A DNA stretch of 54,026 nucleotides from Bifidobacteriaceae bacterium (GCA_031278655.1 JAITJZ010000088.1:1-54026), one strand, 5' to 3'. Positions 18,303 through 25,471 are shown, counted from the first letter of the stretch. Notes: a model not told the origin generated them from the letters alone. Program-made: numbers and translations.

Positions 18303-19619
18303 GTGGCGGGTCTGCCAGGGGGCTTGGCGGCGCCGGCCGAGTTGACGGCGCTGCCAAGCGGGGCGCGCGTGCTGACCGAGCGCGTGCCCGCCGCCCGTTC
18401 CTTCACGGTCGGGTTCTGGATGCAGGTCGGCTCGCGGGATGAGGCGTCCGGCCAGTACGGCTCGACGCATTTCCTGGAGCACCTGCTGTTCAAGGGCACC
18501 CGCAAGCGCGGCGCCCAGGACATAGCGACGGCTTTCGACGCTGTCGGCGGCGAGTTCAACGCCGCCACCGCCAAGGAGTCGACCTGCTATTACGCCCGCG
18601 TGCTGGGGAAGGACGCCGCCTTGGCGGTCAAGGTCCTGGCCGACATGCTGACATCTTCGGTGCTGGACCGCCTCGATTTTGAGAACGAGCGCGGCGTCAT
18701 CTTGGAAGAACTGGCCATGAACCAGGACGACCCGGCCGATGTCGCCCATGAGGCTTTCGCCGCCGCCGTCTATGGCGATCACCCGCTGGCGCGCCCGATC
18801 GGCGGGCGCCCCAGCGACATCCAGGCTGTTGGCCGCGATTCGGTCTGGGACCACTATCAGCGTCATTACCGCCCCTGGAACTTGGTGGTGACCGCCTCCG
18901 GCGACCTCGCCCACGCGGAGGTCGTGGCCCTGGTCGAAGCCGGGCTGGAGCTTGGCGGTTGGGGGGCGCCGGCCCTGGGCGCCCACGCGCCGAGGCCGCT
19001 GCGGCCGACAGGCCCGGCGACGGCGTTGCCGGTCAAAGGACAGGTGGTGGGATTGGCGCGGCCCACGGAACAGGTTCAGGCGCTGATCGGATGCGAGGGT
19101 CTGACCGCCACCGACGAGCGCCGTCACGCGCTGGCCGTGCTCAGCGCAGCACTGGGCGGCGGCATGTCCTCGCGCCTGTTCCAAGAGATCCGGGAGAAGC
19201 GCGGCCTGGCCTATTCGACCTATTGCTTCAGCGCCTCGCATTCTGACGCCGGCTCGTTCGGCGTTTACGCCGGTTGCACCCCTGGCGCCGTCGGCGAGGT
19301 GACGGCGCTGATGGAGGCGCAGTGGGAGCGCCTGGGGCGCGAAGGTCTGGCTGACGGCGAGTTGGAGCGGGTCAAGGGCCAGCTGACCGGCGGCACATTG
19401 TTGGCCTTGGACGAGCCCTACGCCCTGATGAACCGCCTCGGCCGGGCGGCCACCCTGACCGGCGAACTGCCGCCGGTCGAAGAACTCATCGCCAGGGTCA
19501 ACGCCGTCACGGCCGATCAGGTTTCCGACTTGGCGGCGGACCTGGCCGCCCGCCCCCGTTCCCGCGTCATCGTCGGCCCGTCGAAGGACCCTCAGACGCA
19601 GTCGCAATACTCGACGTAG
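18303..19619 (+). CDS. M16 family zinc peptidase (pitrilysin/processing-peptidase type)
   Basis: 438-aa metallopeptidase. The inverted zinc motif HxxEH is present as 'STHFLEHLLFKGT' (His56, Glu59, His60), with the downstream conserved 'FDAVGGEFNAATAKESTCYYARVL' and 'GGGMSSRLFQEIREKRGLAYS'. The ORF track begins at 18006 inside pnp; no ATG lies near the junction, and the GTG at 18303, 10 nt after the pnp stop, gives the usual short N-terminus, so it is my choice although the ribosome binding site is weak. Following pnp directly is the standard actinobacterial order. Its 3' end overlaps the convergent gene below by 28 bp. Confidence 0.9.
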   Translation: MAGLPGGLAAPAELTALPSGARVLTERVPAARSFTVGFWMQVGSRDEASGQYGSTHFLEHLLFKGTRKRGAQDIATAFDAVGGEFNAATAKESTCYYARVLGKDAALAVKVLADMLTSSVLDRLDFENERGVILEELAMNQDDPADVAHEAFAAAVYGDHPLARPIGGRPSDIQAVGRDSVWDHYQRHYRPWNLVVTASGDLAHAEVVALVEAGLELGGWGAPALGAHAPRPLRPTGPATALPVKGQVVGLARPTEQVQALIGCEGLTATDERRHALAVLSAALGGGMSSRLFQEIREKRGLAYSTYCFSASHSDAGSFGVYAGCTPGAVGEVTALMEAQWERLGREGLADGELERVKGQLTGGTLLALDEPYALMNRLGRAATLTGELPPVEELIARVNAVTADQVSDLAADLAARPRSRVIVGPSKDPQTQSQYST

Positions 19620-21409
19620 CCCCAGGCGCAAGAGGCGCCGGCTTTCACCAGTTCGGCCGAGGAGAGCGGTTCGTCGAACGGGCAGGTGCGCGTGACGGTG
19701 GCAGATGTCGGCGAGGGAGTGGGTGTGGGCGTCTGGATGACCGTGTTGGCGCCGCTGCCTTGCCCCGTGGCCAAGGCGTCGAAGGCCGCCCCAGCGGATT
19801 CCAGGTCGGTCAGCCTCGGGGTGGCCTTGACCGAGCACAGTTCCAGATCGTAAAGGGCCCCGGCCACGGCGTTGGCGCGGTCCTCGAACCACGGCCGGAG
19901 CTGACTGCCGCCCTTGACGTATTGGCTGTACTTGATGCCGGCCTCGTCCCAGACCAGCCCGAAGCGAAGCATCAACACGTAGGCGTAGTAGAAGGCGTTG
20001 AGCGTTTCTTGGTTGTGCAGATTCTCCTCGACCAGTCGCTCGCCGAGCCCGCTCCAGACTTCCCAGGCTTGGTTGTAATAGACATTGGCCAGGATGGCCA
20101 TCCGGCTGGCCTCGGACTTGGGGATCTCGGCGAAAGGAGTGTACTTGCCGACCGGCGAGATGGCCACGAGGTTGGCGATGACCCCGCCCAGTTCGTAGGC
20201 GATCAAACCGGAACCGCCGGCCAGTTTCGCAATGACGGCCTCGGCGGCTTTGTCGGAGAAGAAGGCGGCGGACTTGTCCGCGGCCGTCATGACGTAGGTG
20301 TTGCCTGGCGCCGCCAAGGTGTTGGCGACTTGGCGGAGGTCGCTCAAGGCTGTTTGGTCCAGGAACGGGCGGCCCGCCCGGGACAGGGTCTTGTCGGAGA
20401 ACACGTTTTGCGCCGCTTTGACGGCTGTGGTGTCGGCGTTGAGTCGCTCGTAAATCGTGTTCGCGATGTCCCACATCAGCAACCCGGCGTCAACCGCCGT
20501 CCCGGCTTTCTGGGCCGCCTCAGCCAGCTTCGCGCGGAACGGCTCGTTGTCGAAGAAACTGATGTAGCTAGCCATCCGGTCGAGCGGGTCGTCCATCCAG
20601 GCGATCGCGAGCAGGCGGTCGTCCTGGAGGAGGTTCGCGATCTCGAGTCCCGCCCCGGCGGCATCTTTGGTGGTCTTGATCGTCTCGACGACCTCGTTGA
20701 TCGATTCGGTCCTGGCGGCGGCCTTGGTCTTGACCGCGTTGTATGTCATGGTGTTGGCGTCCATGGCGGCGTAGATCGCGTCCTTCCGCCACCCGCCGGA
20801 GATCAAGTCATAGATGCTCTTGCCGCCGGGGTTGATGAAATCGACCAGGTTGTCGAAGAACAGTCTGACTCCGGATTCGGCGATCGCCTGGGGCGCGAGC
20901 TTCTGGTCAAAGACGAAGGCGAAGGCTTCCCAGAAGGTCACTTCGGGCATGTCCACCCAGACCGTCTGCGTCGGGATGTCGAAGGTGACAGTGGCGCCCA
21001 GATAGGTGAACGCCAGGTAGACCGGCGCCAACAGCTTCCCACCTTGTTCGATCAGGCGGATTGGATAGGTTTCGCTGGTGTCGCCGTTGTCGACCGACTC
21101 GCTGAGCGTTTGGGCGTCGGGGTCCAGGGTGACAACCCTGAGGCGGCCCGCGTGCCGCAGGACCCGCTGCCCGTCTTCGCTGGATGATGAGAAACGGGTG
21201 ATGCCTGCGATCCAGCCGATGTCGGCGAACAACTGGCCGTCGCTCAGCCAGAAGACTCTGTCCTGGCTGGGGCCGCCGTTGAGGCTGACAGACAGGTGGT
21301 GTTCGACGGCCTCTCCGGCCGCGCGCGACGGCGCCGGGCCGAGGGCCGCGATCCCGGCCAGCGCGAGCGTCGCGGCCAGGGCCAACCGCAAGGGCCTATG
21401 GGTTCGCAT
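19592..21409 (-). CDS. Secreted protein of unknown function with a copper-amine-oxidase-N-like segment
   Basis: I do not recognise the family. From the ATG at 21409 the product is 605 aa with a Sec signal ('MRTHRPLRLALAATLALAGIAALGPAPSRAAG'). Residues ~45-145 ('VFWLSDGQLFADIGWIAGI', 'LLAPVYLAFTYLGATVTFD...TVWV') look like the small copper-amine-oxidase N-terminal module found in cell-surface proteins. The middle is a long helical region with moderately hydrophobic stretches ('GLIAYELGGVIANLVAI'), and the C-terminus has a Thr/Pro linker ('TPTPTPSPTS') then a Cys-rich end (CAWGYVEYCDCV). Its start overlaps the preceding minus-strand gene by 14 bp, so the pair is one operon. The ORF-track start at 21544 lies inside that neighbour and was rejected. 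Confidence 0.75.
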   Translation of the reverse strand: MRTHRPLRLALAATLALAGIAALGPAPSRAAGEAVEHHLSVSLNGGPSQDRVFWLSDGQLFADIGWIAGITRFSSSSEDGQRVLRHAGRLRVVTLDPDAQTLSESVDNGDTSETYPIRLIEQGGKLLAPVYLAFTYLGATVTFDIPTQTVWVDMPEVTFWEAFAFVFDQKLAPQAIAESGVRLFFDNLVDFINPGGKSIYDLISGGWRKDAIYAAMDANTMTYNAVKTKAAARTESINEVVETIKTTKDAAGAGLEIANLLQDDRLLAIAWMDDPLDRMASYISFFDNEPFRAKLAEAAQKAGTAVDAGLLMWDIANTIYERLNADTTAVKAAQNVFSDKTLSRAGRPFLDQTALSDLRQVANTLAAPGNTYVMTAADKSAAFFSDKAAEAVIAKLAGGSGLIAYELGGVIANLVAISPVGKYTPFAEIPKSEASRMAILANVYYNQAWEVWSGLGERLVEENLHNQETLNAFYYAYVLMLRFGLVWDEAGIKYSQYVKGGSQLRPWFEDRANAVAGALYDLELCSVKATPRLTDLESAGAAFDALATGQGSGANTVIQTPTPTPSPTSATVTRTCPFDEPLSSAELVKAGASCAWGYVEYCDCV

Positions 21410-22061
21410 CGACGTAGTCCTCCACAAACTGCTCGTAATACTCGACATAAAGGCCGGCCAGGTCGCAAGTGACGGCTTTGTCGTAATCGTCGTTGGGGAT
21501 GATCTTGGTTTTTCCGGCGTCTTCGGCGGTCTGGACGGGAACACGGGAGGTCACGGTCTCAGGGTGGTCCGCGAGCGCCTTGATGAATTCCGATTGGAAC
21601 TTCTGGGCGTAATCGTCCGGCTCGAGGTCGAGATCGGCGTCCATGGCCGCGTGGACGTCAGCCAACACCACTCGCAGATCGGGCGTCGTGACCACGGCGA
21701 CGGCCTCCGCCGTGGAGCCGGCTTCTTGAGGGACTTCGAGTTCGACGAACACTCTGTCGTAATAGGCGCGCTCGAAGTCGCGCATGGCGACGTCTCCGAC
21801 GCCGTAAACCAGGTCTTCGTAGGATTCGGACAAGGGGGCGCTTGGTGTGTCCGCCTGGGGCGGCTGGGCCTGGGAGCGGCTTCGCCAGGTCAAGAACGCC
21901 AGGGTGGCACCGCCAGCGACCGCCAGGACAACCAAACCAGCGACGATGGCGATAAGCCAGCGTCGTTTCCGCTTCGGCTTGCCGCCGCGCGGCGGGGATT
22001 CCGGCGCTTTGCGAGGTGGGGCTGCGATGGCCGGAAGCCTAGCACAGCGCCAGAGCAGCAT
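21396..22061 (-). CDS. Membrane-anchored protein of unknown function
   Basis: Unrecognised 221-aa protein. From the ATG at 22061 it has a short Lys/Arg/Pro-rich cytoplasmic segment ('GGKPKRKRRW'), one transmembrane helix ('LIAIVAGLVVLAVAGGATLAFL') and an extracellular domain of about 150 residues that is acidic and rich in Asp/Tyr ('DYDKAVTCDLAGLYVEYYEQFVEDYVDANP'). The ORF track extends to 22295, but that extension is a translation of the palindromic repeats (SGQFDHS/SGQIDHS), so I reject it. It is translationally coupled to the secreted protein downstream; the two probably function together at the cell surface. Four long palindromes lie 50-270 bp upstream. Confidence 0.65.
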   Translation of the reverse strand: MLLWRCARLPAIAAPPRKAPESPPRGGKPKRKRRWLIAIVAGLVVLAVAGGATLAFLTWRSRSQAQPPQADTPSAPLSESYEDLVYGVGDVAMRDFERAYYDRVFVELEVPQEAGSTAEAVAVVTTPDLRVVLADVHAAMDADLDLEPDDYAQKFQSEFIKALADHPETVTSRVPVQTAEDAGKTKIIPNDDYDKAVTCDLAGLYVEYYEQFVEDYVDANP

Positions 22062-22112: not shown

Positions 22113-22174
22113 GGAGTGGTCAAATTGACCACTCAACGCGGTTTTGGCCCTCGAGTGGTCAATTTGACCACTCG
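22113..22174. repeat. 62-bp unit with two 21-bp palindromes, copy 1
   Basis: Palindromes at 22114-22134 and 22153-22173 have identical ten-base arms (GAGTGGTCAA / TTGACCACTC) around a single central base, A in the first and T in the second. A 17-base spacer beginning AACGCGGTTTTGG joins them. An identical unit lies at 22272-22333. Palindrome centres are 39 bp apart within the unit. Confidence 0.85.
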
Positions 22175-22248
22175 CCCCAGGGCCGCCCCGGACGGCCCGA
22201 AACCCAGCCACTTGTCTGACCTGCGGAAACGCTGAGGCCTGGCCGGGC

Positions 22249-22258
22249 GGCATCGGGC
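22249..22258 (+). repeat. Dispersed GGCATCGGGC motif between the palindrome units
   Basis: CCGGGCGGCATCGGGCAA lies between the two 62-bp units; the core is 22249-22258. Confidence 0.5.
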
Positions 22259-22271
22259 AATGGCTGGCTGG

Positions 22272-22333
22272 GGAGTGGTCAAATTGACCACTCAACGCGG
22301 TTTTGGCCCTCGAGTGGTCAATTTGACCACTCG
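22272..22333. repeat. 62-bp unit with two 21-bp palindromes, copy 2
   Basis: Exact repeat of 22113-22174, 159 bp downstream, with palindromes at 22273-22293 and 22312-22332. The four sites lie in the divergent region between dapB (+) and the secreted/membrane pair (-). They may be operators for a GntR/FadR-like or other dimeric regulator (TGGTCA...TGACCA core), or a mobile palindromic repeat. Confidence 0.85.
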
Positions 22334-25209: not shown

Positions 25210-25255
25210 CGCCCCCCGTCGCTCCGGGCCGCGTTCTGGAACCGAACCGCGCACG

Positions 25256-25303
25256 CAAGCCCGGTCAAGTTCGCCTCGGGGCAACTTGACCGGGGTTGAC
25301 TGC
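25256..25303. repeat. CCGGTCAAGTT hairpin element, copy A
   Basis: AAGCCCGGTCAAGTT pairs with AACTTGACCGGGGTT across a ten-base loop. Arms are 12 bp perfect (CCCGGTCAAGTT/AACTTGACCGGG). No T-run follows. It lies just past dinG in the convergent spacer. Confidence 0.75.
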
Positions 25304-25422
25304 CTGGCGTGGGCCGGTAACCGCTCGCCGCGCCTTGAACGGCCCCGGCCGCGGGGCTCTGACCAGCGCGAACGCCGTTGGCTTCGCCCCTGTGGAGCGG
25401 CGCGGCCCCCGGGGGCGCGCAC

Positions 25423-25471
25423 ATAAGCCCGGTCAAGTTTGCCTGGCCGCGACTTGACCGGGGTTAACTGC
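25423..25471. repeat. CCGGTCAAGTT hairpin element, copy B
   Basis: TAAGCCCGGTCAAGTT and ACTTGACCGGGGTTAACTG repeat the pattern of copy A 167 bp away, with a different loop. The conserved flanks outside the stem (TAAGCC / GGTTRACTGC) suggest a defined element rather than a chance hairpin. It could act as a bidirectional terminator between dinG and the minus-strand lipoprotein gene. Confidence 0.75.

What the first reader, a model, noticed from the sequence alone, without database searches (positions are those of the whole stretch)
19592..22061. Uncharacterised two-gene cell-surface module inserted between the M16 peptidase gene and dapB
A single-pass membrane protein with an acidic, Tyr-rich ectodomain and a 605-aa secreted protein with a copper-amine-oxidase-N-like segment overlap by 14 bp and are headed by the four-palindrome array. 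Neither product belongs to a family I recognise. They interrupt the common pnp-protease-dapB order on the opposite strand, suggesting acquisition. The secreted protein has a Cys-rich C-terminus that could be cross-linked or metal-binding. This is my best candidate for an undescribed system in the window.
Basis: partly seen in the sequence, partly recalled or inferred. Interest (0 to 1): 0.55.

Follow-up and report, generated by a model that had tools for sequence, protein, structure and literature searches.

The report
Genus-restricted two-gene surface-binding cassette
Two overlapping genes encode a membrane-anchored protein and a secreted surface protein with swappable tips; the pair sits at a different place in each of three related gut bacteria and is probably used to stick to something, but no function has been tested.

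Summary
The two genes are real and form a unit. A (21396-22061, minus strand) is a single-pass membrane protein with an acidic ectodomain. B (19592-21409, minus strand) is a 605-aa secreted protein. Both match no Pfam or NCBIfam family above cut-off. The overlapping A-B pair occurs in exactly 3 of 99 relatives, all in one genus; two are MAGs named 'Bifidobacteriaceae bacterium', apparently from termite guts. Outside that genus, samples of 396 genomes of the order and 397 of the phylum gave no hit for B. The three loci differ, and two are reciprocally empty: M16-dapB is 16 bp apart in G002, and murA-plsC is about 60 bp apart in the window's genome. So insertion is supported. B has a constant core (a copper-amine-oxidase-N-type 'stalk' plus a large helical region) and a variable C-terminus: a C-type lectin domain in G002, a domain shared with a streptococcal G5-domain protein in G001, and only a Cys-rich tail in the window. 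The 'four-palindrome array' is not part of the module: it is a species-specific dispersed repeat, present at about 10 loci here and absent from the other two genomes. Most likely role: a mobile, translationally coupled surface-recognition cassette. Adhesion is inferred, not shown.

The parts
21396..22061 (-). Gene A: 221-aa single-pass membrane protein. Basic N-terminus, TM about residues 36-54, acidic ectodomain about 80-221 with an alpha/beta (NTF2-like?) model.
   Evidence: Homologues in G001/G002 are 52-55% identical. Model mean pLDDT 65, about 75-92 over residues 121-200. Foldseek top hit 4R4G (B. subtilis YcdA), prob 1.00 but E 1.8e-3 and TM 0.31; weaker NTF2-like, VirB8-like and PBP2a hits. 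The start codon is uncertain (no clear Shine-Dalgarno).
19592..21409 (-). Gene B: 605-aa secreted protein. Signal peptide about 1-30; amine-oxidase-N-type stalk about 34-155; helical region about 160-547; Thr/Pro/Ser linker; Cys-rich tail 574-605.
   Evidence: Homologues 43-47% identical; no Pfam/NCBIfam/PHROG/PADLOC/PDB sequence match for the window protein.
21396..21409 (-). 14-bp overlap of A's end and B's start. A GGAGGA Shine-Dalgarno 8 nt before B's ATG lies inside A's last codons, suggesting translational coupling.
   Evidence: Overlaps also in G001 (26 bp) and G002 (20 bp).
19592..19687 (-). Codons for the Cys-rich C-terminal tail of B (CPFDEPLSSAELVKAGASCAWGYVEYCDCV)
   Evidence: 84% identical in G002; no other occurrence in the own genome or in the other relatives searched.
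19585..19619 (+). Insertion edge: M16 peptidase C-terminus extended by about 12 codons antisense to B's 3' end
   Evidence: M16 orthologues in G002, G004, G005 and G009 end within 0-3 residues after the ...RPRSR-x-x-x-GP/AP motif; the window reads on as ...GPSKDPQTQSQYST.
22114..22332 (.). NOT part of the module: two 60-bp inverted pairs of the palindrome GAGTGGTCAAWTTGACCACTC (18-bp spacer AACGCGGTTTTGGCCCTC), 159 bp apart; species-specific dispersed repeat in the A-dapB gap

Best explanation
A-B is a compact two-gene surface-recognition cassette restricted to one actinomycete genus. Shown: the genes overlap and travel together; the pair occupies different, reciprocally empty intergenic sites; B has a constant core and exchangeable C-terminal domains, one of them a C-type lectin. 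Inferred: A is held in the membrane by one helix and displays a small NTF2-like domain. B is made by translational coupling, exported by Sec, and held near the envelope through its stalk/helical core, probably via A. B presents a replaceable tip that binds a ligand, such as a glycan on wood particles, gut flagellates or neighbouring bacteria. In the window genome the tip is reduced to a Cys-rich tail, which may dimerise or cross-link B or may leave a non-lectin version.
For: Exactly the same 3 of 99 relatives carry A and B, always adjacent and overlapping. Different sites with empty counterparts. The core is conserved at 43-47% while the C-termini are unrelated. G002 tip: Lectin_C E 3.5e-17, and 131 PDB sequences, those shown nearly all C-type lectin-type proteins, matched at E <= 1e-5; it reads EPN and WND, the motifs of Ca-dependent mannose-type lectins (sequence plus established knowledge). 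G001 tip: 42% identical over 128 aa to a Streptococcus equinus hypothetical protein that carries a G5 domain. Stalk fold match to amine oxidase. TM and signal segments. Module G+C 0.635-0.646 against 0.68-0.76 for neighbours; lower than surroundings in all three genomes.
Against: No binding, localisation or A-B interaction data. The window's own B has no recognised tip domain. B's helical core model is poor (mean pLDDT 46.9), so its role is unknown. B has no evident cell-wall anchor, so it might simply be secreted. Only three examples exist.
Confidence: 0.5

Rival explanations
1. A lectin-aimed, membrane-acting secreted effector: the helical core of B inserts into a target membrane and the tip chooses the target, with A as a protective or export partner.
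For: Large helical core with a conserved hydrophobic segment (window residues 402-420; hydropathy 1.2-1.65 in all three); constant core with variable C-terminal tip.
Against: No sequence or fold match to any pore-forming family. The hydrophobicity is modest for a membrane segment. A lies upstream rather than in the usual immunity position. The model of the core is poor.
Confidence: 0.1
2. Envelope maintenance or sensing pair: A's NTF2-like domain binds peptidoglycan or a ligand, and B is its secreted partner in cell-wall shaping or stress sensing; lectin tips bind the cell's own wall.
For: A's fold-search hits include a lipoprotein, VirB8-like and PBP2a NTF2-like domains. NTF2 domains can bind peptidoglycan (Pgp2, abstract of PMC8038945).
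Against: Patchy presence (3 of 10 genus members searched), different locations and low conservation do not fit a housekeeping envelope role. A's fold match is weak (E 1.8e-3, TM 0.31).
Confidence: 0.2
3. Ancestral genus gene pair lost in most members and relocated by genome rearrangement, rather than acquired horizontally. (This concerns origin and is compatible with the binding role.)
For: No donor found outside the genus. Third-position G+C is partly matched to each host (window 0.77-0.86, G001 0.75-0.82, G002 0.66-0.68).
Against: Two different insertion sites, each cleanly empty in the other genome, and lower G+C than the neighbours in all three.
Confidence: 0.3
4. Spurious long ORFs of a G+C-rich genome.
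For: The region carries a 475-aa open frame on the other strand, so long ORFs occur by chance here.
Against: Conserved homologues of both genes, in order and overlapping, with third-position-weighted changes; internal Shine-Dalgarno before B.
Confidence: 0.01

Closest known systems
Copper amine oxidase N-terminal / 'stalk' domain proteins (PF07833, Cu_amine_oxidN1)
   Same: N-terminal beta-rich stretch (34-155) matches the E. coli amine oxidase N-terminal fold; the segment around 128-158 resembles PF07833 in the G001 homologue.
   Different: Below the Pfam cut-off; none detected in the window protein; coupled to an unassigned helical core and variable tips.
Multi-domain bacterial surface proteins with C-type lectin domains (PF00059)
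   Same: The G002 homologue carries a clear Lectin_C domain with EPN and WND motifs.
   Different: The window protein lacks the domain; the scaffold matches no known family by sequence. I did not look for a diversity-generating retroelement.
NTF2-like membrane or lipoprotein ectodomains (e.g. B. subtilis YcdA 4R4G, VirB8-like, PBP2a N-terminal domain)
   Same: Single-pass anchor followed by an alpha/beta domain of similar predicted topology.
   Different: No sequence match; Foldseek E 1.8e-3 and TM 0.31, so membership is not established.
REP/REPIN-type palindromic repeats (for the neighbouring array)
   Same: Short palindromes in inverted pairs, dispersed at about 10 loci; one Y1_Tnp gene in the genome.
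   Different: That transposase gene's contig has no copy among the listed hits; arrays repeat with a fixed 158-159 bp period. Not tested as REPINs.

Membership tests
PF07833 Cu_amine_oxidN1 (gene B) | Pfam score above the gathering cut-off (24.2 bits) | tested here: not met
   No hit in P0001, own genome 0 matches; 14.4 bits in the G001 homologue.
PF07833 Cu_amine_oxidN1 (gene B) | Amine-oxidase N-terminal domain fold | tested here: met
   Model versus 1SPU/6EZZ/1QAK: prob 0.96-0.98, 74 columns, 2.2-2.4 A; Foldseek E about 1, probably because the domain is a small part of a long, poor model.
C-type lectin protein (gene B family) | Lectin_C domain with Ca-site motifs | tested here: not met
   Absent from the window protein and G001; present only in G002.
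Sortase-anchored adhesin (gene B) | C-terminal sorting motif, hydrophobic segment and basic tail | tested here: not met
   No hydrophobic C-terminal segment in any of the three B proteins; no LPXTG-like end by inspection.
NTF2-like superfamily (gene A) | Cone-shaped alpha+beta fold | tested here: inconclusive
   Ectodomain blocks mostly pLDDT 67-92; top hit E 1.8e-3, TM 0.31; several weak NTF2-like hits.
CwsA / Rv0361-type membrane proteins (gene A) | Score above the curated cut-off | tested here: not met
   CwsA 19.3 against 26.7 bits; Rv0361_Cterm 15 against 37; the matches cover only the N-terminal and TM part.
Known anti-phage defence systems | Match to PADLOC-DB models | tested here: not met
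   0 families for A and B.

The most novel reading that the evidence does not exclude
A mobile two-gene surface-recognition system: a constant, previously unknown helical scaffold that pairs with a dedicated NTF2-like membrane partner and accepts interchangeable tips (lectin, G5-associated domain, Cys tail). Related gut symbionts would use it to switch what they adhere to, for example gut flagellates or plant particles.
Probability: 0.25. Interest if true: 0.55.

Novelty: new variant of a known kind. Interest (0 to 1): 0.35.

Why it matters
It is an undescribed gene pair in a little-studied lineage apparently associated with termite guts. The constant-core, swappable-tip anatomy and the reciprocal empty sites make it a tractable candidate for how such bacteria change surface specificity.

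Tried and rejected
Pfam, NCBIfam, PHROGs, PADLOC and PDB sequence searches of A and B: no assignment. Plasmid, phage and viral-contig searches for B, and viral contigs for A: no homologue. The Cys tail as a reusable sorting tag: rejected, it occurs only on B in the own genome and in the relatives searched. The palindrome array as module regulator: rejected as a defining feature. RNA families: none. Sigma-70 promoter or terminator in the A-dapB gap: none. Weak A-profile hits in G008, G015, G017 and G061 (E about 5e-4 to 9e-4) cover only model positions 5-66, the basic and TM part, and were discounted.

Full report
Observation. Gene B (19592-21409, minus strand, 605 aa) and gene A (21396-22061, minus strand, 221 aa) are present as described and overlap by 14 bp. 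A has one transmembrane segment and an acidic, Tyr-containing ectodomain. B has a signal-peptide-like start, no C-terminal membrane segment and a Cys-rich tail. B's ATG is preceded by GGAGGA at 8 nt, inside A's last codons. B's 3' end overlaps the convergent M16 gene by 28 bp.

Are they genes? Yes. In 99 relatives, B is found in three genomes (own, G001, G002) and A in the same three, apart from weak hits to its TM part; all three belong to one genus. In each, A and B overlap in the same order: 14, 26 and 20 bp. Protein identity to the window is 43-47% for B and 52-55% for A, and differences are most frequent at third codon positions. A genome-contig scan, which may leave out the window's own genome, returned only the same two: 'Bifidobacteriaceae bacterium' MAGs Gsp477_bin37 (JAIRYJ010000005.1, G002) and Cd354_bin95 (JAIROU010000488.1, G001). 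The prefix Gsp477 is used for a Glyptotermes termite sample in PMC11707648, so a termite-gut source is likely (inference). Samples of 397 genomes of the phylum and 396 of the order gave no B outside the genus.

Insertion. In G002, G009 and G004, M16 and dapB are separated by 16, about 50 and about 200 bp with no module; in G005 the gap holds an aminotransferase-like gene instead. G002 carries its own A-B pair between murA and plsC, next to a separate PIN-type ORF. In the window's genome, murA is followed by plsC-gpsA after about 60 bp, and the genes are also close in G004 and G001. In G001 the pair lies in a third context, convergent with an ABC-transporter ATPase gene. The pair is therefore the unit and the neighbours are not. 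M16 in the window ends with about 12 extra residues read antisense to B's 3' end, which marks the insertion edge. Module G+C is below its surroundings in all three genomes. Acquisition or movement is well supported; the donor is unknown.

Anatomy of B. The three B proteins share about 550 residues and then diverge. G002 carries a C-type lectin domain (PF00059, E 3.5e-17; closest solved relatives are C-type lectin proteins) followed by the same Cys tail as the window. G001 carries another domain, 42% identical to part of a Streptococcus equinus hypothetical protein that has a G5 domain, and no Cys tail. The lectin reads EPN and WND, the calcium/mannose-type motifs (sequence plus established knowledge of C-type lectins). 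The N-terminal beta-rich part aligns with the N-terminal domain of E. coli copper amine oxidase, in line with the weak PF07833 match. The helical core (about 160-547) could not be modelled well from three sequences and stays unassigned.

Anatomy of A. The ectodomain model is moderate. The best solved match is the B. subtilis lipoprotein YcdA (prob 1.00, E 1.8e-3, TM 0.31), with weaker NTF2-like, VirB8-like and PBP2a hits. An NTF2-like fold is the best guess and is not established. No profile match covers the ectodomain above cut-off.

The palindromes. GAGTGGTCAAWTTGACCACTC occurs at 41 sites (core pattern, up to 2 mismatches) in this genome, nearly all of them in about 10 loci, as 39-bp-spaced inverted pairs that repeat every 158-159 bp. 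It is absent from the other 58 genomes of that search, including G001 and G002. It is a species-specific dispersed repeat that here lies between A and dapB; it does not define the module. A local effect on A's expression is not excluded.

Mechanism. Shown: paired overlapping genes, mobility, constant core with exchangeable tips, export and membrane signals. Inferred: A anchors or assists B at the envelope, and B presents a binding tip. Rivals are a membrane-acting effector with a lectin aim, an envelope-sensing pair, and (for origin) ancestral loss instead of gain.

Novelty. The parts belong to known superfamilies (amine-oxidase-N stalk, C-type lectin, possibly NTF2-like), but the pair and the helical core are undescribed in the libraries searched. 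I file it as a new variant of a known kind (modular surface-binding proteins), with modest interest because function is untested and only three examples are known.

Noticed in passing
window 22114-22332; also G000 contigs C22, C34, C35, C50, C62, C100 (two places), C122, C125: Species-specific palindromic repeat: inverted pairs of GAGTGGTCAAWTTGACCACTC with a conserved 18-bp spacer, in tandem units of 158-159 bp with partly conserved, fixed-length inter-unit DNA; several contigs end close to it.
   Followed up: partly
window 25248-25303 and 25416-25471: A second repeat type downstream of the dinG-like gene: two 56-nt copies 168 bp apart, each with an imperfect palindrome (CCCGGTCAAGTT...AACTTGACCGGG).
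   Followed up: no
G000:C135:35196-35519 (L064): Single Y1_Tnp (PF01797) transposase gene in the genome, a candidate RAYT/IS200-type enzyme; no copy of the palindrome was listed on its contig.
   Followed up: partly
window 19585-19619: The M16 peptidase gene ends with about 12 codons not found in its orthologues, read from DNA antisense to gene B's 3' end.
   Followed up: yes
L059 2690-4145 (G005): In G005 the M16-dapB gap holds an aminotransferase-like gene instead, so this junction takes different insertions.
   Followed up: partly
L022 27-115 (G001): A short tandem array (23-bp period, GGCTCAATTACGTGTCC) lies upstream of the G001 pair; unrelated to the window's palindromes.
   Followed up: no
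L063 5001-5393 (Streptococcus equinus plasmid CP020439.2): A domain shared by the G001 B protein and a 1488-aa streptococcal G5-domain protein; no Pfam model matches it.
   Followed up: partly
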